DNA of 25,839 nucleotides from a virus, in the IMG/VR virus record IMGVR_UViG_3300017991_000370, positions 1 to 25,839 of that record; one strand, given 5' to 3'. How positions within the stretch are numbered: the stretch's first letter is position 1; the number at the start of each line of letters is the position of its first letter. Under the pieces are notes generated by a model that saw only the letters and a list, made by a program, of their open reading frames with translations, did not search any database and was not told where the DNA came from. Both the position numbers and the translations under genes were made by a program. Shown one piece after another: positions 1 through 15,737 of the stretch.

Positions 1-1959
1 AGGTCATACAGTCGATCAACTTTTTCAAAAAGCGATCCGTTTTCGCAGATCATGTTGATCAAGACCACTAAGCCGACAATGAGAGGAGCAGGGTGGTATC
101 TTCAGATTGATGATATGTTTTCTCAAAAAGTCAGAGAGACGGATGCTTATAAAGCGGCATTCGATTTTCTGCGTCGGAAGCTTGGTGAACCTGACTTCAG
201 CATGCGTCAAACAATTGAATGGTTTGCTGATTCTAATCGTCCAAGACCAATCAGAGAAGACATGGTAAGCTTCACTGAATACGGCACGAACAGCAAAGTG
301 GCGTTTGAAGCTGATCCTGATGATTTCTTGAATGGCAAGGATCGCGGCAGCGAAGCGGACGAAGGCGATCTTGATTATGACGGTCAGGTGGCGTCGGAAG
401 CCGCGATGGATGTCGATACTCAGTATGATCCGAAACATTTTCCTGCATTCAATATGCGGATAAAGAGCGGAGATCCTGAGTCGGTCATTAAGTTTTTTCA
501 GAAGCTGAAAGGTTCGGCTTCCAAATATATCTATAAATATGAATCTGGAAGCTTGAATCCGCCATATCAGCGGATCATTTTTACGGATGGTTCAGAAGCA
601 CGAATCATGTTGAAATCAGGAACTATTTCCAATGATCGTCATCCGTTCGGTTGGCGTTTGGAAATTCTTCGAAATTCTCCTGACGCTCCTTATTCTTCAG
701 TTGCTCCAATAGAGAATTGTTTGGCAAATCTGATTGTCGGACGAACAGTTGAACGCACTCTTGGAATTCCAGATGGAATTGAAAAGAGCGCTGGAACAGG
801 AGCGAAATTCTATTATTGGTTCATTGCTCCTGAAAAGGTCGGTGAATCAACTGAAGTGAACGAGCGAGCCGTGATGCTGGGAAAACGCGATCAGGCGGGC
901 GTTCTGAGGCGCGCAGTCGATTTCATGAGGCAGATGAGCAGTCTGCATAGAGGGCAGATCGCCAAGCGATATCCGAACACAAGGGACGGCGGCGGCGAGC
1001 TGGAATTCAACGATGGTTCGGCCGCATGGCTTCTGAAACTTCCTGGACAGGGACGCAAAGGGGTTGGTTGGTATTTGGGTATCGCCGTCAAGGACGCCGT
1101 TGCAGAGCACGGTCCTGGGAAATGGCAGGAAACGGTTGCAGGCGAGCTGATCGGCGACGCGATCAAGAAGCAGTGGGGGAAGCCTGATGGAGATGACAAG
1201 ACTGAAGGGTGGTGGTTCTTGGGAGACGTCAAGCTTGATGAATTGACGAATGGTCACGCTCCTGCCGGTCTTGGCAGATTCGAACGTGCGAAGCTGTTCT
1301 TTGACAAGATTGGACAGAAACATCGCAGCCGAATCAGGAAAACAGAGAGAGATGCGAAAGGCGTCAAATTTTATTTCAATGATGGTTCTGATGCTTCGCT
1401 CAGAAAAAACAGCAGAGACGGTAAATGGTATCTGACTGTGGCGCATGGCGGGGCGATTGCGGGTTCAGGAAATTGGAATGAGACGCTTGCGGGCGCGTTA
1501 GTTGGCGACAAGGTTTGGAAAGGATGGGGGAAGCCGGATCATGCTGAGAGAATTGCAGAATATCAGCCGTACGTTGTCTGGCTTGTCGAAAATACGATGA
1601 GCGAAGCGGACGACGGCAAAGACGTTGTGCTCAAGATCGATGTCGGCGATGATGTTGAGAAGACCGCAAAGCAGTTCATGATGGACATGAGCGGCGTGCA
1701 TGGCGGCAGCATCATCAAGAAACAGCGCGAACAGGGCGACGGCATCAAGTTTGTCTTTGCCGACGATTCGGCAGTCAGTCTGTACTTCGCGAATTCGGCG
1801 ATGGGTCGCGGTTGGTATTTGGCGGTTGGTCCGCGAAGGTCTGGCGCACCGTGGCGCGATACCTATGCGGCATATTTCGCCGATGCTGTGCGGGCGGGGC
1901 TGAAGCGCGATCCTGACGGAGATGACAGCAACAGTGCGTTTTGGTTCCTTGGCGAATAG
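1..1959 (+). CDS. Multi-module phage protein of unknown function, 5'-truncated
   Basis: The reading frame is open from base 1, so the gene begins upstream; the ATG at 52 is only the first internal Met. From that Met it is 635 residues made of tandem copies of one ~110-residue module. Each copy has an amphipathic helix, a strand ending in D-G-S (residues 179-181, 321-323, 444-446; D-D-S at 571-573), a G-x-Y-L/G-W-Y-L strand (14-17, 337-342, 457-461, 587-590), a W-x-E-T helix, then G-x-P-D and a W-x-F end (for example 376-379 and 387-390). The first copy is cut by the window edge. A low-complexity acidic stretch (about 85-125) separates copies one and two. I recognise no known family. It lies 17 bases upstream of the gp25-like baseplate gene, and single divergent copies occur in the genes at 2361 and 4008, so a virion or assembly role is an inference only. 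Confidence 0.85.
   Translation, partial: RSYSRSTFSKSDPFSQIMLIKTTKPTMRGAGWYLQIDDMFSQKVRETDAYKAAFDFLRRKLGEPDFSMRQTIEWFADSNRPRPIREDMVSFTEYGTNSKVAFEADPDDFLNGKDRGSEADEGDLDYDGQVASEAAMDVDTQYDPKHFPAFNMRIKSGDPESVIKFFQKLKGSASKYIYKYESGSLNPPYQRIIFTDGSEARIMLKSGTISNDRHPFGWRLEILRNSPDAPYSSVAPIENCLANLIVGRTVERTLGIPDGIEKSAGTGAKFYYWFIAPEKVGESTEVNERAVMLGKRDQAGVLRRAVDFMRQMSSLHRGQIAKRYPNTRDGGGELEFNDGSAAWLLKLPGQGRKGVGWYLGIAVKDAVAEHGPGKWQETVAGELIGDAIKKQWGKPDGDDKTEGWWFLGDVKLDELTNGHAPAGLGRFERAKLFFDKIGQKHRSRIRKTERDAKGVKFYFNDGSDASLRKNSRDGKWYLTVAHGGAIAGSGNWNETLAGALVGDKVWKGWGKPDHAERIAEYQPYVVWLVENTMSEADDGKDVVLKIDVGDDVEKTAKQFMMDMSGVHGGSIIKKQREQGDGIKFVFADDSAVSLYFANSAMGRGWYLAVGPRRSGAPWRDTYAAYFADAVRAGLKRDPDGDDSNSAFWFLGE
472..1956 (+). 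repeat. Four complete tandem copies of a protein-level module
   Basis: Protein-level repeats at roughly 472-831, 895-1227, 1270-1596 and 1648-1956, with the tail of an earlier copy before 231. Copies share F-x-D-G-S, G-W-Y-L, W-x-E-T and G-K-P-D/W-W-F-L landmarks in the same order. DNA identity between copies is low, so the duplications are old. Copies three and four are the most alike. Confidence 0.75.
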
Positions 1960-5195: not shown

Positions 5196-6815
5196 ATGTC
5201 GAACGGCGGCACTGATTCTCAGATCATCGTTGAACGCAATCAGGTTTGGAGTCCTGATTTCACCGCGTTGAATTACGATGCGTTGCAGGCTGAAATAGTC
5301 GGCTACATCCGATCGCGATACGAAGAAGAGGGAATCCAGACGGATTATCTTCAGACGAATGCCGCGATCCTGATGACGGACGCCGCTGCGTATGTCGGTC
5401 ATCTGCTTGGAAACCGAATGGACGATCTGGTTCATGAGGTTTGGCTTCAGACTGCTCAGTTGCGGACGAATGCACTGTTGACGCTGCGGACGCTTGGACA
5501 AGAGCCGTTGTTGCCGCGTGCGGCACGTCTTCCGGTGGTGGTAACGTTCGAAGACATTCCAAACGTGGATGTCATCATGGCGCGGCTGTATCAGATCAAC
5601 GTGACGGGTCTGGATGGAACGACGCTTCAGTTTGAGGCGATGTTCGAAAAAGGAGACTACTACAGCAGCATCATCCTTCCTGCGGGCACCAAGAGAAACA
5701 CTGTATATTTCTATGAAGGAGTTACGTATCAAGACATTTTCCAGAGTACGGGTGCGCCGCGCCAACAATACAGACTTCAGCGCAGTCCGGTTATCGAAGA
5801 CAGCTTCTATGTCTCGGTTTCTCCGATTGCGCCAGATATCATCACGGCTGAACAAATCGTCGCTTCACGAATCACGCAGGTGGATTCTTTGGTCACGTCG
5901 TTGGATGAGATCATTTACACCTATGATGTGATGGAAAACAATGAAGTACTGCTTCGATTCGCTACGGATGAATTTGGGCAGATTCCGCCAAGGGGCTGGT
6001 ACATCTATGTTGATTATCGAGTGGGCGGCGGAAGTCGCGGAAACGTTTCGGTGGGCGCTGTTGATACGAATACCAATTTGGTGGACGATGCTGGGAACAG
6101 TGTAAGAGCACTGTTGGCGAATACTACATCAGGAGCAACGGGTGGTGCGAATGAAGAATCTCTAGAAGAGATTGCTGAGCGTGTTCCGGCGCGTGTGGCG
6201 ACGGCGAGCAAGCTGGTTCAACGTTCCGATTACGATTCGATGCTGCGTGAGATTTTGCCTGACGAAATCGATCGCGTTTACGTAATGGACTATCAGACTG
6301 CAATTCGAATCAACCGGGCGAATCCGATCGTTCCGCAAAACAGCGTTTATCTATGGGTTCTTCCAAAGAATGCTTCTGTGATGAGCGAAGACCAAAGGCA
6401 GATCATCGCGACTAGCTTGGAAGAGCTGAACTTGATTGCCATTGCACACTACTTATTCGATCCTGATTACAATGATTGGACGCTTCAGGCCGAACTGTAC
6501 GTTGACAGAACAGTCAATCAGGAGCGTGCCGAGACGGCTATTCGTGAGCAGATGCTTGCGGAATTCGGTCAGTTCAATTTGGAGAATCAGCCGACAGGGG
6601 CGCTTCGGTTCAATCGAGCTGTGCGCATCAGCAAGTTGATTGAGATATTGCAGAAGAACATCGGGGCAACAGATGATACTGGAAATTATGTGGTTCTGCG
6701 GAATCCTGCTGCGGATATTGATCCTTCATCTTCGATTCCTCCGCGATACGGAGAAATCACAAGATTGACCAATGATAATATTTTTCTAGATTTTATTCTC
6801 AGAGAGGAATCTTGA
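5196..6815 (+). CDS. Baseplate J-like / gp6-type baseplate wedge protein
   Basis: 539 residues. The baseplate-J hallmark is at about 309-349: a G-A-T-G-G-A-N-E-E-S-L-E-E-I block, then R-V-P-A-R and V-Q-R-S-D-Y-D-S-M, corresponding to the family pattern G-G-x-D-x-E-S ... R-x-P ... T-x-x-D-Y. The N-terminal part (about 20-110) has the usual helical segment with a Q-T-D-Y/R-M-D-D-L pattern. In P2 gpJ and T4 gp6, these proteins form the wedge ring that joins the inner baseplate to the fibres. AAAAAGG upstream of ATG 5196 is a good ribosome site. Its stop overlaps the next start by one base (TGATG), so translation is likely coupled to the gpI-like gene, the same J-then-I order as in many contractile phages. 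Confidence 0.9.
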   Translation: MSNGGTDSQIIVERNQVWSPDFTALNYDALQAEIVGYIRSRYEEEGIQTDYLQTNAAILMTDAAAYVGHLLGNRMDDLVHEVWLQTAQLRTNALLTLRTLGQEPLLPRAARLPVVVTFEDIPNVDVIMARLYQINVTGLDGTTLQFEAMFEKGDYYSSIILPAGTKRNTVYFYEGVTYQDIFQSTGAPRQQYRLQRSPVIEDSFYVSVSPIAPDIITAEQIVASRITQVDSLVTSLDEIIYTYDVMENNEVLLRFATDEFGQIPPRGWYIYVDYRVGGGSRGNVSVGAVDTNTNLVDDAGNSVRALLANTTSGATGGANEESLEEIAERVPARVATASKLVQRSDYDSMLREILPDEIDRVYVMDYQTAIRINRANPIVPQNSVYLWVLPKNASVMSEDQRQIIATSLEELNLIAIAHYLFDPDYNDWTLQAELYVDRTVNQERAETAIREQMLAEFGQFNLENQPTGALRFNRAVRISKLIEILQKNIGATDDTGNYVVLRNPAADIDPSSSIPPRYGEITRLTNDNIFLDFILREES

Positions 6816-9800
6816 TGGCTGAAGTCATCAAACAATATAATCCGATTACGGCTTATGGGGAGCCGATACGCTTTGCAGTTTCAACTGATGGCGGCAGCTA
6901 CATGGTCGTCAATGACGGCGGCGGCGATTACTATCTTGCACAGACGGAAGTTACAGAAGAATTGGGAATTGACGGCAGCGTGTTGGACCGTGAACCTGAA
7001 GGGACATTCTGGCTTCGCGGAAAACTGGTGACTCGGGATCTTTTTGGAGATCTGCGACAGAATGACATTGTTCCGCATCATGTGCAGATCATCGGAACGG
7101 AACAGTATGATGCTTCTGCGATTGTTCCGCTTGCGGGAACACGGCTCAAGTTCAGCATCGGCGATCATGACGTCAGCGTTTACTTCGCATCCGATTTGGC
7201 TTCATCGGCGATCGTTCAGTTGGTGACAAACGAACTGATTTCAATTGATCCTTCATTGCGTGATGCATTTCAATACGATACGACTTCGAAACGTTTCTTG
7301 GTCACGACTCAGACGCCGAAGGAAAATCCGGTTTCCGCATTCGGCGCGCGGATGCAGATTGAAAACGGAACAGCGAATGAGGCGTTTGGGTTCGTCAATT
7401 ACGACTTTGCTTTAGGTGATATTCCTCCAGAATATGACGAAATAGTATTCTATGCTCTGCTTCAGGACAAGACGGAATACACGTCTGACGGCGGCATGAG
7501 TGATTATGTTCCGGTGAAGGAAGAAAATCGTCTGTTGGACAAGATGATTCCGAGACATGATCGCGACATCATCAAGGCCAACAAACAGCTTTTGCTCTAT
7601 TGGGACGGTATTGCTTACGGCATGGATGTCATGGAGCGCGAAACGACGCGCATTCTATATTCCTTTTCGGTTGATAAAATCGATGCAGAATATCTGGAAG
7701 AGATTGCGCGCACGCTCGGCTTTGATCTGCCGATTTTGGGGAATCCGTCAGACGATGTGAAGCGGGATTATGTGCGGAACCTGATCCGCATCTATCAGAT
7801 CAAGGGAACACCGACAAGCGTTGAGACCATTTTTAGGTTTCTGCAATACACGACCACGCTGACAGAACGCACAAGCGATGCAAGCAAGAATTATCCGCTG
7901 ATCATCATCACGGTGGATCAAGCAGACATCGAAAGCTACTATTCAAAGTTCCTGCAAACGAATGATCCGAATGATTTCTTTGATTCGTTCAACTTCTTCA
8001 TGATCGATCAGGCCGATGATGACCATAGAATTTCAGTGAAGCAATGGAATCGGCTTCCGATCATTTCCGGCCTTGACATTGAGATTCAAGATTCGACAGG
8101 TGCGGCAATCACATTGCCGAAAGTTGAAGGGTCGTTGCTGAGTCCGTTTGACGTGTCGGAAGACACCGGACGGCTTGTTCTCTCGACGGCACCGACTCCG
8201 AATTTTCAGGTGGATGAAGAGTTGTACGCAAGCGGCGTCCATATCGGGCGCGTCGAACAAGTGATTGACGCATCGAACTATTATGTGCGCTACGCGGAAA
8301 ATGCCGTCAACAATCTGCCGTTCAGTCATATCACGGGCACATTCGGCGGCGGAACGACTGTTTCAGGCGTCATCAGCAAGCACTTGCCGAACAGCAGACT
8401 GAAGTTGTTCATTGATCAGCGATATCCGTTGGAAGTCGATTTCACTGATCATGAAGCTGTGTTCATCACGGGCGGCATTCGAGCCGCAACGGCTGAAGAG
8501 GTGGATCAAGCGATTCAGATCGCAGCGGCTGAACAAGGCGTTCCGATTCAGATCTTTCATGCTGGCGGATTCATCACGGCGCAGTCTTTGCTGTATGGCA
8601 GCAACGCAAGAGTGGAAGTGACGAACGGCAATTATGCCATTGGATTTACTGACGGCTACGTAACGCCAAGCATTTTGAATCCTTGCTTTGTTCAGTTTGA
8701 CAAGGGCGTCGTCAATATTTCGCTTGGCGAAGGCGAAACGATCGAAGCAACGCTGAATGCTGAGCCGATCATTGCGTTGGATAATAGCATTGAATTCTTC
8801 TTTGCTCATTTAATAGATGAGGATGACCCTTATTCGGTAATGGTCCTGACCAATAATGAAAGCGAGGGCAAAGCGCGGCTTGCTCAGTTGGCTAAGCTGC
8901 GATGGGAAGGGTCTGGGTTTAGAATCGACGCAAAAGACGCACAAGATGATTATCGGCGTCCTTTGTGGGATGAATTGAGCGATTCTCAACAGCGTCAACT
9001 GAAAATTTTCGTCCAGTATCGAGACAATCAGGAACGGTATTGGATTGCTGCTGGAAGACCATCCGCAGGAGATCCGACGAATCCAGGCAGATACAACGAA
9101 AGGCATCCTTGGATTCCTGCCGATTTGACGGTTGATCCGGGTCTAGGCAACAGCATTTTTGCGCAACTGGAATTCGAACCGTTCGAAGAAACGGATCTTA
9201 CAGCGGAGGATCTGAAGCGGTTGTTGTGGTTCGTCGAGTTTCTGAGACCCGTGCATGTTGTTTTTGATCTGATTATCCAAGCGATTTCAGAAGAAGAACG
9301 TGTCATCGGTTTGCCGTATGATCCGTTGCGCTTCGGCTTCAATACCAAGTTTCCAGACTTCCTTGGGAATCATCCAATTTTCCATTGGTTGACGGCGACA
9401 TTGGGCGCGTTGCTTGAGGATACGCTGCGGCTTCCATGGCTTGGGTACAAGAACTATACCCATCGATTCTGGCCTGTCGGAGGTGTCGGGGCAAACTATC
9501 AAGTAGGCGACGTTATTGAACTTTATTTCATCAAGCAGAGGCTGAACAAGATGCCTCATCTGCCGTTCGTCTATGGCGATCTGCTGAACGCGGTCGGCGG
9601 CGCGCAAGGATACATGGGAACCGATTTGAACGATCGGTGGTATATGCTTTATGACGTGGATGAGACTGGTGGCGATTGGAGCGGTAATGTTTCAGCGGCA
9701 ACCACGATTCCGGGCAGAGAGGCGCAGTTTGAACAGTTGAATGCGGTTCAGGTTCTGTTGACGGTGACGGTTGCTTCTCCGGGCGCTCCGGGCGTCGGCT

Positions 9801-11380
9801 ACATTGACGTTCAGTGCGCAGATAACATTTGGGCGATTCCGAGACAAGGTACGCTGTACAACCTGCGGACCAATCTGCCTGAGCAATTTACGGCAACCAA
9901 TCTGGAAGTCAGGCATGAGCGGGCCGGATATTACTTTACGGGCTTTCCTCCGGTTTCGCGCTATGTCGATCGTGAAGGAAATCCATTGGCCAGTCCGCCA
10001 TGGGGCATGCCGACGTTTGACGCGCGGGTGAACGTTCCACACCGATTGACTCAGTTGAGCTATCCGCACTTGTGGGATCGTGGCGCGGGCTTCGTGGATT
10101 TCATTGACGGCGAAAATCCGGCCGTTCACGCCTACACGCTTCGCGACTTTATGCGCGAACCTCCGATTTATGATATTTCGGAGGGTGCCTTGAAGTTGAT
10201 CATGAGTCGTTCGGACGGCGGCAATCCGCTGAGCGGTGTAACGATTCAATCATGGGCTCCGGGCGCTCGAATCGAAATCCTGCAAGCGGACTTGACGCTC
10301 TACAAGCAGCGCGTGCGGACTGATACCGTCAACCATGCCGAAGATCATTGGCCGATTACCGTCGTGACGATTAAGGATATGAACGGCAATCAGTTTTGGG
10401 CGTACGCCAGATGGCAGAACGCGGCGTACTCAACAACCATTCCAGAAGATCGCGATAAGCTTTATGTCTGGAAGGACATGAGAGGCACGCAGTCGGGGTG
10501 GAATCCATGGCCTGGAAGCGGAGTGCCGACTCCGCTGAGCGGTTCGGTTCAAGAGTACAAGTTTTGGCATCTCAATCCTTGGGCGACTCCGGGCGCGGAT
10601 CGGTTGCAGGCTGAGTTTGAGGCGACGTGGGAAGACGACGCTCGCACGCCAGCACAAGACGTCTATCATGACAAGATGGATGGCGTTTTCAGTGGAATGG
10701 GGAACGGCAAATCTGAATCGCAAGGTCCGCTGAACATTCCGTTGGGCGGCGGTTTTTGGGCGAATCGGACTTTCGGATGGAATTCGACGTTGGGCGGCAT
10801 TTGGCCGGTTTTTGATGCCGATTCCATGATTGTGGTGGAAGACATTGAGAACGTTACGATTTTTTCTGATCTGTACAACTACGATCCCGTCACGGGAATC
10901 GTGACGTTCGCCAATCCCGCTTTAGGAGTCAAGGCGGGAGATTTCTTTGTCTCCAACCCGCTCGCCGCTCCATTTGATCTGATGTATCACACGGTGCTTG
11001 GCGTATTGGGCAATACCATTCTGATCAGGCCGAACACGTTGGTGGACGTGGGCGGTGTCGCTGTTCTGCCTAATGGTCATCTCAATATCACTCATGTGAC
11101 GCTTGCAGGCGCGGGCGATGTCCGCGATGGTCAATTGTTGATTGGTTCGGCCGGTCTGATTGATACTTTGCTCACATGGGATATGTTGATGAACGCTTTG
11201 GCTCCGGGCATGACTCAATATCTGGATTTGAGTCCGAACGATATTTTAGCCTTGACGCTTATACCTCTGATTTATTACATTCAAGGAGATACAGAGCTGC
11301 AAAACGGCTACACGCCTTCGCCGACTCCATCAGTCTTCGATAATTTTCCATACGGCGTTTTCTATCAAGGCTGTCCCTGA
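6815..11380 (+). CDS. Very large gpI-like tail/baseplate protein
   Basis: 1521 residues. A P2 gpI-type tail protein region lies at about 240-345: a helix with R-H-D-R-D-I-I-K-A-N-K-Q-L-L-L-Y-W, then L-G-F-D-L-P and I-R-I-Y-Q-I-K-G-T-P, the classic 'KGT' turn. A second family-like block, L-R-P-V-H-V-V-F-D at about 809-817, closes the first half. Two copies of a small beta module occur at about 112-197 and 529-614. The C-terminal half is rich in G, W, P and aromatics and has no clear coiled coil; it looks like an elongated baseplate or fibre-connecting region. Its position after the J-like gene and its size resemble a fused gpI/gp7-type wedge protein. GAGAGG at about 6801-6806 supports ATG 6815 over the TTG at 6812. 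Confidence 0.85.
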   Translation: MAEVIKQYNPITAYGEPIRFAVSTDGGSYMVVNDGGGDYYLAQTEVTEELGIDGSVLDREPEGTFWLRGKLVTRDLFGDLRQNDIVPHHVQIIGTEQYDASAIVPLAGTRLKFSIGDHDVSVYFASDLASSAIVQLVTNELISIDPSLRDAFQYDTTSKRFLVTTQTPKENPVSAFGARMQIENGTANEAFGFVNYDFALGDIPPEYDEIVFYALLQDKTEYTSDGGMSDYVPVKEENRLLDKMIPRHDRDIIKANKQLLLYWDGIAYGMDVMERETTRILYSFSVDKIDAEYLEEIARTLGFDLPILGNPSDDVKRDYVRNLIRIYQIKGTPTSVETIFRFLQYTTTLTERTSDASKNYPLIIITVDQADIESYYSKFLQTNDPNDFFDSFNFFMIDQADDDHRISVKQWNRLPIISGLDIEIQDSTGAAITLPKVEGSLLSPFDVSEDTGRLVLSTAPTPNFQVDEELYASGVHIGRVEQVIDASNYYVRYAENAVNNLPFSHITGTFGGGTTVSGVISKHLPNSRLKLFIDQRYPLEVDFTDHEAVFITGGIRAATAEEVDQAIQIAAAEQGVPIQIFHAGGFITAQSLLYGSNARVEVTNGNYAIGFTDGYVTPSILNPCFVQFDKGVVNISLGEGETIEATLNAEPIIALDNSIEFFFAHLIDEDDPYSVMVLTNNESEGKARLAQLAKLRWEGSGFRIDAKDAQDDYRRPLWDELSDSQQRQLKIFVQYRDNQERYWIAAGRPSAGDPTNPGRYNERHPWIPADLTVDPGLGNSIFAQLEFEPFEETDLTAEDLKRLLWFVEFLRPVHVVFDLIIQAISEEERVIGLPYDPLRFGFNTKFPDFLGNHPIFHWLTATLGALLEDTLRLPWLGYKNYTHRFWPVGGVGANYQVGDVIELYFIKQRLNKMPHLPFVYGDLLNAVGGAQGYMGTDLNDRWYMLYDVDETGGDWSGNVSAATTIPGREAQFEQLNAVQVLLTVTVASPGAPGVGYIDVQCADNIWAIPRQGTLYNLRTNLPEQFTATNLEVRHERAGYYFTGFPPVSRYVDREGNPLASPPWGMPTFDARVNVPHRLTQLSYPHLWDRGAGFVDFIDGENPAVHAYTLRDFMREPPIYDISEGALKLIMSRSDGGNPLSGVTIQSWAPGARIEILQADLTLYKQRVRTDTVNHAEDHWPITVVTIKDMNGNQFWAYARWQNAAYSTTIPEDRDKLYVWKDMRGTQSGWNPWPGSGVPTPLSGSVQEYKFWHLNPWATPGADRLQAEFEATWEDDARTPAQDVYHDKMDGVFSGMGNGKSESQGPLNIPLGGGFWANRTFGWNSTLGGIWPVFDADSMIVVEDIENVTIFSDLYNYDPVTGIVTFANPALGVKAGDFFVSNPLAAPFDLMYHTVLGVLGNTILIRPNTLVDVGGVAVLPNGHLNITHVTLAGAGDVRDGQLLIGSAGLIDTLLTWDMLMNALAPGMTQYLDLSPNDILALTLIPLIYYIQGDTELQNGYTPSPTPSVFDNFPYGVFYQGCP

Positions 11381-11395
11381 AACGAAAATAAATTC

Positions 11396-11400
11396 TTGAT
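11396..11400 (+). other. TTGAT motif at the left end of the TnpB element (candidate TAM)
   Basis: TTGAT immediately precedes the element's left-end hairpin. TTGAT is the target/TAM pentanucleotide of the well-studied ISDra2 TnpB. The position fits IS200/IS605-type insertion, which occurs 3' of the motif without target duplication. Confidence 0.55.
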
Positions 11401-11402
11401 TT

Positions 11403-11417
11403 GTTGGCAAACCCAAC
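11403..11417 (+). other. Left-end hairpin of the TnpB element
   Basis: Inverted repeat GTTGG-CAAAC-CCAAC placed two bases inside the inferred element end. IS200/IS605 elements carry subterminal hairpins that TnpA recognises as single-stranded DNA. A 5-bp stem is short, so this rests mainly on its position next to TTGAT. Confidence 0.45.
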
Positions 11418-11457
11418 GTACCATGACTGCAACAATCAGGAGTCACACAACAATCCA

Positions 11458-12708
11458 ATGCCGCTGATTCTGTCGCACAAGATTCGATTGAAGCCGAACG
11501 ACAAGCAGGTTGCTCATCTGAAGCATGCCTGTGATGTGTCGAAGTTCGTCTACAATTGGGCTTTGAATCAGTGGCAACGGATGTTCGAAGCGGGCGAGAA
11601 GCCGTCTGCAAACAAGATCGACAAGCGTTTCAATCAAGTCAAGAAGCAGTCCTATCCATGGGTTTTGGATGTCAGCAAATCTGTACCGCAGATTGCAATC
11701 AAGAACCTTGGGCAGGCATTCAAACGATTCTTCAATAAGAAATCGAAATATCCTCACTTCAAACGAAAGAACAAGTGTAAGAAATCGTTTGGACTACAGA
11801 ATAATCAGTTTGCGATAAGCGAAAAAACCATTCGACTGCCCAAGCTGGGCAATGTTCGAATGTACAACACGCTTCGCTTTTCCGGAAAGATCATGTCTGC
11901 AACCATCAGTCGTACTGCTGACAGATGGTTTGTTTCGATAGCTGTTGAGATTGACTTTGATCCATCAACGTTCAGACACGAAAACCAAGGTCTGATCGGG
12001 ATTGATGTAGGACTCAACAGTTTTGCTGTACTCAGTACGGGTCACTCATTTGATGCGCCGAAACCATTGAAGCATGCCTTGAGACGGTTGAGAACACTGA
12101 ACAAGAAGTTGTCCAGACAAGTTCGATTCTCCAACAACTGGAAACGAACCAAGAACCGAATTGCAAAACTGTATTATCGAATCAGTTGCATCAGAAACGA
12201 TTTCCTGCACAAGCTGACTTCGTTTTTGACACAACGATTCAACGGCATTGCAATCGAGGATTTGAACATCAAAGGCATGCTTCGAAATCACAAGCTTGCG
12301 CGATCGATCAGCGATGTTGTTTGGTCTGAGTTTCGAAAACAGTTGGAATACAAAGCGGAATTGTACGGCTCCAAAATCGTTGCAATCGATCAATGGTTTC
12401 CAAGCACACAGAAGTGTTCGAACTGCGGTGAGCGCAAGCAAGGAAATGAGAAACTGAAGCTTGGTGATGAAGTCTATCACTGCAAGCATTGCGGTTTTGA
12501 AGCGGATCGTGACTTCAACGCTGCAATCAACATCAAAAATCAAGGCTTCAGCCTTGAGTCGGCCAATGGCTTGTCGGTCAAGAAGTCTGTCGCCTCATTG
12601 GTCAATAGTTTCAGTGCATCAGTGCTGAAGCCAAACCAAGATTGGGCAGGAAGTTTTCATGGGTCTGCTGTAGATAGTGCAGCAATGCAATCACAACGGA
12701 TTCAATAA
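11458..12708 (+). CDS. tnpB: TnpB RNA-guided endonuclease (OrfB, IS1341 type)
   Basis: 416 residues from the ATG at 11458, a typical full length. An N-terminal OrfB helix-turn-helix region (about 1-130, with Y-N-W-A-L at 32-36) precedes a split RuvC nuclease: G-I-D-V-G at 181-185 (D183), I-E-D-L-N at 266-270 (E267) and D-R-D-F-N-A-A at 350-356. A four-cysteine zinc ribbon (C320, C323, C342, C345) sits before the last motif. All catalytic positions look intact, so the nuclease is probably active. The last ~55 residues lie over the DNA that would encode the 3' guide RNA. AGGAG at 11438-11442 is 15 bases from the ATG, which is long. Five bases separate its stop from the sigma factor ATG. The protein cuts DNA next to a TAM under guidance of the element's own RNA. 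Confidence 0.95.
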   Translation: MPLILSHKIRLKPNDKQVAHLKHACDVSKFVYNWALNQWQRMFEAGEKPSANKIDKRFNQVKKQSYPWVLDVSKSVPQIAIKNLGQAFKRFFNKKSKYPHFKRKNKCKKSFGLQNNQFAISEKTIRLPKLGNVRMYNTLRFSGKIMSATISRTADRWFVSIAVEIDFDPSTFRHENQGLIGIDVGLNSFAVLSTGHSFDAPKPLKHALRRLRTLNKKLSRQVRFSNNWKRTKNRIAKLYYRISCIRNDFLHKLTSFLTQRFNGIAIEDLNIKGMLRNHKLARSISDVVWSEFRKQLEYKAELYGSKIVAIDQWFPSTQKCSNCGERKQGNEKLKLGDEVYHCKHCGFEADRDFNAAINIKNQGFSLESANGLSVKKSVASLVNSFSASVLKPNQDWAGSFHGSAVDSAAMQSQRIQ

Positions 12709-12725
12709 GAAAAATGAAGCACTAC
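12570..12725 (+). ncRNA. Candidate omega RNA (reRNA) with guide reading into the sigma factor gene
   Basis: TnpB elements encode a guide RNA whose scaffold overlaps the tnpB 3' end and stops at the right end; the guide is the flanking DNA. Here the scaffold would end at GGATTCAA (12698-12705), similar to the GGTTCAA I recall at the ISDra2 scaffold end. The guide would start at 12706 and span the sigma factor start codon (12714-12716). The 5' limit is not visible and is set only approximately. Confidence 0.45.
12666..12684 (+). other. Right-end hairpin of the TnpB element
   Basis: TGCTG (12666-12670) pairs with CAGCA (12680-12684) around a 9-base loop, about 20 bases before the inferred right end. 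It fits a subterminal transposon hairpin and a stem in the guide RNA scaffold. An alternative pairing of TGCA at 12678-12681 with TGCA at 12686-12689 is possible. Confidence 0.4.
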
Positions 12726-13295
12726 TTCAGAAACAGGGAAGTCACGTCAGCGGTACAAGAATATCAGGCGACAGGTAATCAAGCCGTTCTTGGTCCTTAT
12801 ACTAAGGACATACGCGATTTGATTCTTGCCGTCATTAATGCCAATCGTTTTCGACAATTTGGAATTGAACTTGAAGATTTACAGCAAGAAGCATTTGTCA
12901 CGTCTATTCAATGCCTTAAAGGATTCGATCCGAATTATGGCAAGAGCTTGTTTTCCTACCTCAGTTTAGCCGTCAAATACCGACTCATTGACATCACCAA
13001 GAGGGATACGCGACACCGGCAGCGGAACATTTTAGTGACGGGCGGGACGCCGATTTTTTCGCTTGCGGAGGAACAATCAAGACCCGCTGTTTCTGTCAAA
13101 AAATCACTTCGCTTCAAGGTCAAAAAGAACGGCAACCCTATGGTGAATCGCACAATCATTGCCATTGATGCTTTGATGGTTGACGATCCGTGCTGTGTGG
13201 ATGGTTGCGATGCCATCACGCACATTATGAAGATGAGCGGCCTGTCCAGATTGCAGACTGAAAAAGCGGTCAGCACAATTCAATCGAACCTGTAA
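12714..13295 (+). CDS. gp55-like late-transcription sigma factor
   Basis: 193 residues, close to T4 gp55 (185). The N-terminus (K-H-Y-F-R-N-R-E-V-T-S-A-V) parallels the gp55 start (Y-N-Y-V-N-N-K-E-L-L-Q-A-I), which fixes the start at ATG 12714. A sigma-70 region 2-like block follows: L-E-D-L-Q-Q-E-A-F-V-T-S-I at 53-65, then G-F-D-P-N-Y-G-K-S-L-F-S-Y-L at 70-83, and a basic stretch at 89-103. There is no region 4 of normal size, as in gp55. In T4, this sigma directs host RNA polymerase to late promoters with a TATAAATA -10 and works with gp33 and the sliding clamp. No strong Shine-Dalgarno is present; the TnpB element ends 8 bases upstream, so expression may be coupled to tnpB or altered by the insertion. 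Confidence 0.8.
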   Translation: MKHYFRNREVTSAVQEYQATGNQAVLGPYTKDIRDLILAVINANRFRQFGIELEDLQQEAFVTSIQCLKGFDPNYGKSLFSYLSLAVKYRLIDITKRDTRHRQRNILVTGGTPIFSLAEEQSRPAVSVKKSLRFKVKKNGNPMVNRTIIAIDALMVDDPCCVDGCDAITHIMKMSGLSRLQTEKAVSTIQSNL

Positions 13296-13340
13296 ATCGA
13301 ATATAAGCTAAACGGGAATGGTCAACTGAAGGTGTACGAA

Positions 13341-13730
13341 ATGACCAAAGAAAAAGAGAAAGTTCTCTTCGGAGGAATCGAAATTGAACTGAGCGGCGAT
13401 GCTGAAATCGACAAGATGATTGTTGAAGTGCTGAAGCAAAGCGACAAGATCGATGTCGAAGCGGATGAAGCCTGGATCGCCGCGCGGGTCACGTTTGAGG
13501 AAACCAAAGACGGCTTTCATTTGAAGGTCGCAACAGACGCGCTGAAGGTCAAGCAGAAGTCTGTGGATCAAAGGCTGAAACTGATTCAGGAACTGTTGAG
13601 ATACAAGCGAGAAGAGAAGAAGATCGAATTGAAGCGTGAAATGAATACGGACCAAGAAAGCGGATTCGATCTTTCCAATCTGGCGAAAACCGGAGACGGA
13701 AAAAACACGGGACAGCGTCAGCCGCACTGA
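13341..13730 (+). CDS. Small coiled-coil protein, unknown
   Basis: 129 residues, no family recognised. ATG 13341 is chosen over GTG 13332 because GAAGG at 13328-13332 lies 8 bases upstream. An acidic first half (about 10-50) is followed by a strongly helical, lysine- and glutamate-rich segment (about 63-108) with L-x-x-x-x-x-x-L spacing that predicts a coiled coil, then a polar tail. It follows the gp55-like sigma gene. I see no resemblance to the T4 co-activator gp33. A coiled-coil protein this size could be a small terminase subunit or scaffold part, but nothing specific shows that. Confidence 0.7.
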   Translation: MTKEKEKVLFGGIEIELSGDAEIDKMIVEVLKQSDKIDVEADEAWIAARVTFEETKDGFHLKVATDALKVKQKSVDQRLKLIQELLRYKREEKKIELKREMNTDQESGFDLSNLAKTGDGKNTGQRQPH

Positions 13731-13759
13731 TGGATGTTCCTTGAAAGGCTGGTCATAAA

Positions 13760-14212
13760 ATGCCAGGCGCATTTGGTCAAAATCAAGGCCAGATCACATA
13801 CTCTATGAACCAGTTGACCATTCCGTGGTCGGCGTTTCAGTTCTTTTTCAAAGGTCAAATGGCCTATCCGTTCGGCCGCAATCTTGGATTCCCCCCTGCG
13901 GGACCGCCTGCGTTGGGCTGGGATGCTGATGGAAACCATTTGCGAGAGACGCTGATATCACTGCTTGGCGACATCAAGCAATATGGCGCTCCGTCCAAGA
14001 AGGATCGGGTGACTGCGGTTCTATTGAATCAAGCCGTCACTCAGAACTTGATTACGCCGACAGATCGCGGCGAATATATCTTGACGAAAGACGGCGAAGA
14101 CTTGTGGGACTCGTTTGCTCATCCTCCCGAAATGCCGAATTTGAGCGCGAATACAATCAATGCCCAAATGGGCGATATTATGAATAGAATCTATCCAGGC
14201 AAACAGTGGTAA
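13760..14212 (+). CDS. Small protein, possible winged-helix, unknown
   Basis: 150 residues, no family recognised. The first 45 residues are rich in Q, F, G and P (M-N-Q-L-T-I-P-W-S-A-F-Q-F-F-F at 16-30). Residues 60-118 resemble a winged-helix layout: a helix (R-E-T-L-I-S-L-L), a second helix (V-T-A-V-L-L-N-Q-A-V) and a short hairpin (G-E-Y-I-L-T-K-D-G-E). Some phage adaptor proteins have similar folds, so both a structural and a DNA-binding role are open. GAAAGG at 13743-13748 supports the start. Confidence 0.7.
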   Translation: MPGAFGQNQGQITYSMNQLTIPWSAFQFFFKGQMAYPFGRNLGFPPAGPPALGWDADGNHLRETLISLLGDIKQYGAPSKKDRVTAVLLNQAVTQNLITPTDRGEYILTKDGEDLWDSFAHPPEMPNLSANTINAQMGDIMNRIYPGKQW

Positions 14213-14230
14213 GCAGAATAGCAGGAAGTC

Positions 14231-14761
14231 ATGACGCCTTCGCCTGAACGCAACGAACCGGTTGATATTCATACTTTTATACTGGATAGCTACTATGATA
14301 TGCGGGAATGGTTTCGCATCATTTCGCGCGGCATTCTGATCGTAATGATGCTGTTGGCGATTTTCGCCATCTTCATTTTGATCATCGGGTTTGGTTGGTT
14401 GTTGGAGACTGTAGGCAATAACTTTGTTGCAGACGGCGAAACACTGAAACAGGTAAACGCCGTCATTCAATTCTTGGCATTCTTGTTCTTTGGCACTGCG
14501 GGCATTGCGACGGTCAAGAAAATGGGACCGTTCGGAATCTTCAAGATGATCATGGAATGTCTGCACAAAGAAGAACGCAGAGACCAAATCGGTCCTGATT
14601 TTCAGATAGGTTGGCAGTGCAAACGATGCAACCGCATGTTGAGTAACCGGGACATGCAAATGCTTCAAGCAGGTGCTCCGATCAATGAACCGTCTGAGTT
14701 GTGCCAGGAAACCAAGGATTGTCTGCATCATTGGGCGAAATCCAATCCAGTAAAGGAATAG
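14231..14761 (+). CDS. Two-helix membrane protein with a cysteine-rich tail
   Basis: 176 residues. Two strong membrane helices (about 34-57 and 75-95) precede a C-terminal soluble part with C130-x-x-C133 and C158-x5-C164 followed by two histidines (166-167), a plausible zinc site. AGGAAG just before ATG 14231 gives a good start. No family is recognised. A holin was considered, but the long cysteine-rich tail is unusual for one. It lies directly upstream of the LD-carboxypeptidase (one base between stop and GTG start), so the two are probably co-translated. Confidence 0.75.
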   Translation: MTPSPERNEPVDIHTFILDSYYDMREWFRIISRGILIVMMLLAIFAIFILIIGFGWLLETVGNNFVADGETLKQVNAVIQFLAFLFFGTAGIATVKKMGPFGIFKMIMECLHKEERRDQIGPDFQIGWQCKRCNRMLSNRDMQMLQAGAPINEPSELCQETKDCLHHWAKSNPVKE

Positions 14762-14762
14762 C

Positions 14763-15737
14763 GTGGAAACCATTCGGCCAAAAAAACTTCCGCAGCGTGA
14801 CGCAAAAATCGGGTTGGTGGCTCCGTCGTCTGCGATCAATACAAGATTTGTCGCGTTGGGCATTAAGGAGATTTCGGAACGATACGACGTGACGTTCAAG
14901 CTTGGGCGCAGCGTCAATCGAATGATCGAAACCGACTTGACTGCGGCGTCCGTCGAAGTGCGGGCGAATGACATCAACCAAATGTTCGCGGACCCTGAGA
15001 TTGATGCAATCATGGCGGCGCGCGGAGGCTACGGTTCTCAGGAGCTGATCAACCATCTCGACTACGATGTGATCAAGGACAATCCAAAGCCGATAGTTGG
15101 TTTCTCGGATGTGACTGCAATCCTGAACGCCATTACGGTCAAGACGGGCATGATTACGTTTTTGGGTCCGACATGTGAAATCCCGCGAATGTCGGATGCA
15201 GAAAGAGCGAATCTGGATTTCCTGTTTGAGATGTGGCGTGAACCGAATCCTCAGATGCTGTTGCAGATGAAGAGTTCGCTGAACATCGTGAGAGCGATTG
15301 AGACGCAGAAGAAAATTGGAAGCGGCAGGCTTTTCGGCGGAAACATGGTTCTGACGACTCGATTGATCGGGACGCCGTTCGAAGTTCCATCTTCCGATGT
15401 CGTCTTGGCATTTGAAGAAATCGGCGAATCTCCGATTTCTGTGGATGGAATGTTGCATCATCTTCAATTGTGCGGCATCCTGAACAGGAATGTGCCTGTG
15501 CTGTTCGGTGACTTTGTGCGCAACCGATCGGCGTCGGGCGGCAGTTTGAGCCAAGAGGATTCGAATCCATCGATCAATCTGATATTGATCAATCGACTGA
15601 AAAACCAGAATGCTCCGGTTTTGGCCGGTTTTCCGTTCAGTCATGGAGAATACAACTTGACGTTGCCGATCGGCGCAAAGGTGCGCGCGGATGCATCAAT
15701 CAGTTCGGTGACGGTTCTGGAACCTGTTGTACAGTGA
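14763..15737 (+). CDS. S66-family LD-carboxypeptidase (LdcA/MccF-like)
   Basis: 324 residues, full length for the S66 family. The nucleophile motif G-F-S-D-V-T places Ser at 115, preceded by A-R-G-G-Y-G (86-91). The Glu of the triad fits F-E-E-I at 217-220, and the His fits F-S-H-G-E-Y-N at 292-298 (H294), ahead of L-P-I-G. All three catalytic residues look intact. LdcA enzymes remove the terminal D-Ala from cytoplasmic murein tetrapeptides; MccF relatives cleave microcin C. No signal peptide is visible, so it should act in the cytosol. The GTG start at 14763 has AAAGGA 5 bases upstream. Why a phage structural operon would carry it is unclear: peptidoglycan weakening before lysis and protection against an antibiotic are both possible. 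Confidence 0.85.
   Translation: METIRPKKLPQRDAKIGLVAPSSAINTRFVALGIKEISERYDVTFKLGRSVNRMIETDLTAASVEVRANDINQMFADPEIDAIMAARGGYGSQELINHLDYDVIKDNPKPIVGFSDVTAILNAITVKTGMITFLGPTCEIPRMSDAERANLDFLFEMWREPNPQMLLQMKSSLNIVRAIETQKKIGSGRLFGGNMVLTTRLIGTPFEVPSSDVVLAFEEIGESPISVDGMLHHLQLCGILNRNVPVLFGDFVRNRSASGGSLSQEDSNPSINLILINRLKNQNAPVLAGFPFSHGEYNLTLPIGAKVRADASISSVTVLEPVVQ

What the first reader, a model, noticed from the sequence alone, without database searches (positions are those of the whole stretch)
11396..12725. Solo TnpB element seated exactly at the late sigma factor start, with a guide that would target the empty site
TTGAT (11396-11400) directly precedes a left-end hairpin. The inferred right end (TTCAA, 12701-12705) is followed at once by DNA covering the gp55-like start codon. 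Under the known TnpB mechanism the guide is this flank (12706-12725). An uninserted relative would have TTGAT joined to this same sequence, that is TAM plus target, and would be cut and repaired with the element. The RuvC residues are intact and no TnpA is present. This makes a case for RNA-guided homing into an essential late-transcription gene, analogous to homing endonucleases in T4-like phages.
Basis: partly seen in the sequence, partly recalled or inferred. Interest (0 to 1): 0.8.

Follow-up and report, generated by a model that had tools for sequence, protein, structure and literature searches.

The report
Phage TnpB element abutting sigma gene

Summary
The TnpB element is real, but its right end and guide were misplaced. 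A 90%-identical copy and a 60%-identical copy (protein) sit at unrelated sites in another phage contig (G001), and a tnpB-less guide RNA lies elsewhere in G001. Across these four sequences 12706-12721 is shared (13-16 of 16 bases) and likeness drops to chance (2-4 of 20) at 12722. So the element and its guide-RNA scaffold end at 12721, not 12705. The sigma gene's start codon (12714-12716) lies inside the element, and the natural guide is CTACTTCAGAAACAGGGAAG (12722-12741), not 12706-12725. The 'left hairpin' is not conserved. TTGAT is kept in all three tnpB copies, but there it is also a -35-like box 17 bases before a -10-like box. TnpB is under purifying selection (dN/dS 0.13) with its catalytic residues intact. 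RNA-guided retention or homing is the likeliest function, but it is inferred, already published for TnpB in general, and no empty site was found. Joining the flanks gives sigma no ATG or GTG start. The most interesting by-product is the stand-alone guide RNA beside G001's tail-sheath gene (held-out model E=2e-19).

The parts
11393..11402 (+). TTCTTGATTT, identical in all three tnpB copies; holds TTGAT (11396-11400, candidate TAM) and the -35-like TTGATT; the left edge of the element lies at 11393 or just after 11400
11396..11424 (+). promoter-like TTGATT - 17 bases - TACCAT ahead of tnpB; same spacing in L003 (TACCAT) and L179 (TATCAT)
   Evidence: pattern scan found only these three and the tnpB-less guide RNA in G001 (both strands) and the window + strand; the generic promoter scan did not list it
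11458..12708 (+). tnpB, 416 aa, RNA-guided nuclease family
   Evidence: Pfam PF01385, PF07282, PF12323; NCBIfam NF040570 guided_TnpB 309.6 bits against cut-off 100; dN/dS 0.13 against the L003 copy
12561..12721 (+). omega-RNA (guide RNA) scaffold, overlapping the 3' part of tnpB and the first bases of the sigma ORF
   Evidence: covariance models R1 and R2; 9 pairs with changes on both sides, 91% of cells paired
12701..12705 (+).
12706..12721 (+). conserved right tip TAAGAAAAATGAAGCA of the element and scaffold; 12711-12715 pairs with 12653-12657 in the RNA model
12722..12741 (+). natural guide CTACTTCAGAAACAGGGAAG (starts at 12722, or 12723 if the C belongs to the scaffold); lies in codons 3 to 10 of the sigma ORF
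   Evidence: follows from the boundary and the TnpB mechanism (PMC8612924); no RNA data
12714..13295 (+). gp55-like late sigma factor, 193 aa; its start codon and second codon lie inside the element
   Evidence: PHROG 234 late sigma transcription factor E=6.6e-4; Pelagibacter phage HTVC008M gp55 26.7%; the next in-frame start codon is at residue 36
6812..11380 (+). upstream tail protein gene, ends 12-20 bases before the element
   Evidence: Pfam Tail_P2_I, PHROG 48 tail protein

Best explanation
The feature is a TnpB-only insertion element of about 1.33 kb (11393 or 11401 to 12721) in a myovirus-like phage. TnpB is made from a promoter at the left edge; the 3' part of the same transcript folds into a scaffold ending at 12721 and runs on into the sigma gene, so the guide is the sense sequence of the first sigma codons (3 to 10). 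If a co-infecting or replicating phage genome has the sigma gene without the insert next to a suitable motif, TnpB would cut it and repair from the filled copy would restore the element. Shown here: the anatomy, the right boundary, the RNA fold, the conserved coding sequence, and copies at unrelated sites. Inferred: promoter use, guide use, TAM, cleavage, homing, and how the element moves.
For: Copy in L003 at 90% DNA identity between a MazG-like gene and an unrelated ORF, and copy L179 with a TnpB 60% identical to the window's, both in G001. Identity ends at 12721|12722 in all pairwise comparisons. Four-sequence RNA model with compensatory changes; a model built without the tnpB-less copy still finds it at 2e-19 and finds the scaffold beside a distant tnpB (L098, 9.5e-4). 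Catalytic residues conserved, dN/dS 0.13. Closest natural protein with a solved structure is ISDra2 TnpB (8bf8).
Against: No uninserted relative was found, so neither the junction nor the TAM was seen. Rejoined flanks give sigma only a TTG start without a ribosome-binding site (TTG ATC TAC), or no start. TTGAT may be kept because it is the -35 box and not because it is a TAM. Some TnpB-type proteins have lost nuclease function; here the triad is intact but activity is untested.
Confidence: 0.68

Rival explanations
1. One reading: the right end is TTCAA at 12705 and the guide is 12706-12725, spanning the sigma start codon.
For: TTCAA resembles the right tip of IS200/IS605 elements (general knowledge); TTGAT is the ISDra2 TAM (PMC8612924).
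Against: 12706-12721 is shared by two other copies at unrelated sites and by a tnpB-less guide RNA, and 12711-12715 is paired in the scaffold with a compensatory change.
Confidence: 0.03
2. Site-specific homing into one short target: the phages share TTGAT plus ATTCARTAAGAAAAATGAAGCAC because the element always enters that sequence, so 12700-12722 is target and not element.
For: The shared block lies at the right edge; some IS607-type relatives end in AACGG, and ACAACGG occurs at 12693-12699.
Against: The block is also in L179 and in the tnpB-less RNA with paired, covarying bases; flanks outside share nothing; no empty target was found in G001 or the window.
Confidence: 0.05
3. A passenger element: TnpB is kept or lately acquired but does not home here, and the insertion is tolerated because its tip happens to supply a start codon to sigma.
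For: No transposase in the window; sigma depends on the element's ATG, which the L003 copy also has although there it begins only a nine-codon ORF.
Against: Strong purifying selection on tnpB over the divergence between copies, with an intact catalytic triad.
Confidence: 0.2

Closest known systems
ISDra2 TnpB of Deinococcus radiodurans (IS200/IS605 type)
   Same: RNA-guided nuclease with significant sequence match; TTGAT at the left; guide taken from the right flank; proposed homing
   Different: No Y1 TnpA and no conserved left-end hairpin; different right tip; the residues aligned with ISDra2 Y52 and S56 (TAM contacts, from memory) are not conserved in the alignment
IS607-type TnpB (for example ISXfa1, ISFba1)
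   Same: Nearest genomic TnpB relatives (48% and below) have an IS607 serine recombinase beside them where a transposase was found; the model finds a scaffold next to the tnpB of L098, which has a serine recombinase upstream
   Different: No TnpA here; no matching core dinucleotide at the two tips; AGGAG, GAGGG or GGG TAM not seen at the left; NCBIfam IS607_TnpB scores below IS200_TnpB and both are below cut-off
TnpB homing and plasmid gene drive (PMC8612924, PMC11870625)
   Same: The same proposed logic: cut the copy lacking the element, repair with it
   Different: Here in a phage genome and untested
Free-standing homing endonucleases of T4-like phages
   Same: Selfish insertion near an important phage gene, expected spread in co-infection
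   Different: Target set by RNA from the flank and not by protein recognition

Membership tests
RNA-guided TnpB family | OrfB/TnpB domains and RuvC D-E-D triad | tested here: met
RNA-guided TnpB family | structured right-end RNA scaffold ending at the element end | tested here: met
   that the flank then serves as guide is inferred
RNA-guided TnpB family | guide-dependent DNA cleavage next to a TAM | not testable with these tools
   needs biochemistry
IS200/IS605 (Y1) element | Y1 TnpA, conserved end hairpins, TTGAT-type insertion site | tested here: not met
   one Y1 query finds none in the window or G001; left hairpin not conserved; only the TTGAT part fits
IS607 element | serine-recombinase TnpA and the same core dinucleotide at both ends | tested here: not met
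   no TnpA in the window or beside L003/L179; no shared dinucleotide at the tips; relatives have it and G001 carries one serine TnpA elsewhere, at 1150-1563 minus
Homing element in a phage gene | uninserted alleles whose junction is the cut site | tested here: inconclusive
   no uninserted relative in viral contigs or phage records

The most novel reading that the evidence does not exclude
These phages run a small TnpB guide network: TnpBs encoded at some sites also serve stand-alone guide RNAs such as the one between G001's tail-sheath gene and the next gene, so that RNA-only elements ride on TnpB in trans; and in the window phage the guide-RNA tip doubles as the translation start of the late sigma factor, so that TnpB processing of the transcript would compete with sigma translation.
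Probability: 0.15. Interest if true: 0.7.

Novelty: new member of a known kind. Interest (0 to 1): 0.42.

Why it matters
If TnpB works as inferred, RNA-guided homing would be acting on a late-transcription gene during phage co-infection, a natural setting where copies with and without the element meet, and it could be tested in one cross. The stand-alone guide RNA in a phage with two intact TnpBs of the same kind would make trans use of TnpB guides directly testable.

Tried and rejected
Searches for an empty site: blastn of 10000-14500 in phage records, no match; tail protein, no match; sigma protein, only the same phage and one distant sigma; terminase, only the same phage above 37% identity; MazG-like neighbour of the L003 copy, only the same contig and 41-44% relatives; the 71 kb relative of G001 is 99.95% identical over 69 kb and does not cover the L003 site. 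The first genome-contig scan gave no relative. Idea that the scaffold ends at ACAACGG 12699 as in some IS607 types: dropped after the fourth sequence and the RNA model. The exact 18-mer match in L188 is chance, inside a tail gene. The guides of the three tnpB copies have no second match of at most 1 mismatch in the window or G001 (the guide of the tnpB-less RNA was not scanned). Rfam gave nothing. Model R1 found nothing in the three whole bacterial genomes tried, without a positive control. A blastn of the scaffold in phage records gave only a chance-level match. Three TnpB papers are not held in the library.

Full report
What was checked. The window is a 25.8 kb IMG/VR virus record; no larger genome is held. 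It reads as part of a myovirus-like phage with T4-type terminase, baseplate and tail genes. TTGAT is at 11396-11400 and an intact tnpB ORF runs from ATG 11458 to the stop at 12706-12708. Domains and catalytic residues are those of RNA-guided TnpB, and the closest natural protein with a solved structure is ISDra2 TnpB. The ORF at 12714-13295 is a weak but consistent match to late sigma factors.

Where the element ends. One contig of sample 3300018080 (G001, 138 kb) holds a 90%-identical copy between a MazG-like gene and an unrelated ORF (L003), and a second copy whose TnpB is 60% identical to the window's (L179). Searching G001 with the right tip also brought up a guide-RNA-like stretch without any tnpB on the minus strand at 119717-119879. 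Comparing the four, bases 12706-12721 agree in 13-16 of 16 positions, and 12722-12741 in only 2-4 of 20. The element and scaffold therefore end at 12721. The ATG of the sigma gene at 12714 is element sequence, also present in the L003 copy, where it begins only a nine-codon ORF.

The RNA. The four sequences fold into a common structure; 91% of cells are paired, nine pairs have changes on both sides (shuffles 3.4 on average, none of 500 as high) and slid controls collapse. Four sequences are few, so the fold is well supported but not final. A model built only from the three tnpB-linked copies finds the tnpB-less copy at E=2e-19 and the scaffold next to a distant tnpB in Desulfocicer (L098, 9.5e-4).

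The left end. TTCTTGATTT is identical in all three tnpB copies, and 17 bases after TTGATT come TACCAT, TACCAT and TATCAT. A scan of both strands of G001 and the + strand of the window for this spacing gave only these three and a like site before the tnpB-less RNA. TTGAT can therefore be a promoter box, a TAM, or both; the generic promoter scan did not list it.

Lineage. Among TnpB relatives, those with a detectable transposase nearby have an IS607-type serine recombinase and none a Y1 transposase, although NCBIfam scores are higher for the IS200 model. G001 itself carries a serine TnpA beside a third, distant TnpB. Known IS607 TnpBs use other TAMs, so the ISDra2 TAM should not be assumed.

Function. 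dN/dS is 0.13 between the window and L003 copies, so the protein is being kept. Homing or retention by cutting element-free copies is the published role of TnpB and the likeliest one here, but no uninserted relative was found. Joined at 11400 and 12721 the flanks would start sigma at TTG ATC TAC; all other joins tried lack an ATG, GTG or TTG start. Either the native start was weak, or it was lost when the element came in; the latter would argue against a clean homing event. Sigma has no other in-frame start before residue 36, so it now depends on the element's tip.

Judgement. The stand-alone guide RNA and the start codon inside the guide-RNA tip are the parts worth following.

Noticed in passing
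L276:19717-19879 minus strand (G001 119717-119879), also L284:558-720: A guide RNA of the same family without tnpB, between a tail-sheath gene and the next gene, after a perfect inverted repeat and a TTGATT-17-GATAAT promoter-like stretch; natural guide GCAAAAAAATGGGCGTTCTC. Fold z-score -4.9.
   Followed up: partly
L271:86-757 and 1150-1563, minus strand (G001): A third, distant TnpB (29%) next to an IS607-type serine recombinase at the contig end; a possible transposase in trans.
   Followed up: no
window 11847: The identical phage contig 3300018080_004446 breaks off inside tnpB, as expected if repeated copies in that sample broke the assembly.
   Followed up: no
window 14763-15737: A 324-aa ORF that looks like an LD-carboxypeptidase-type protein in the structural gene region (impression only, not searched).
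   Followed up: no
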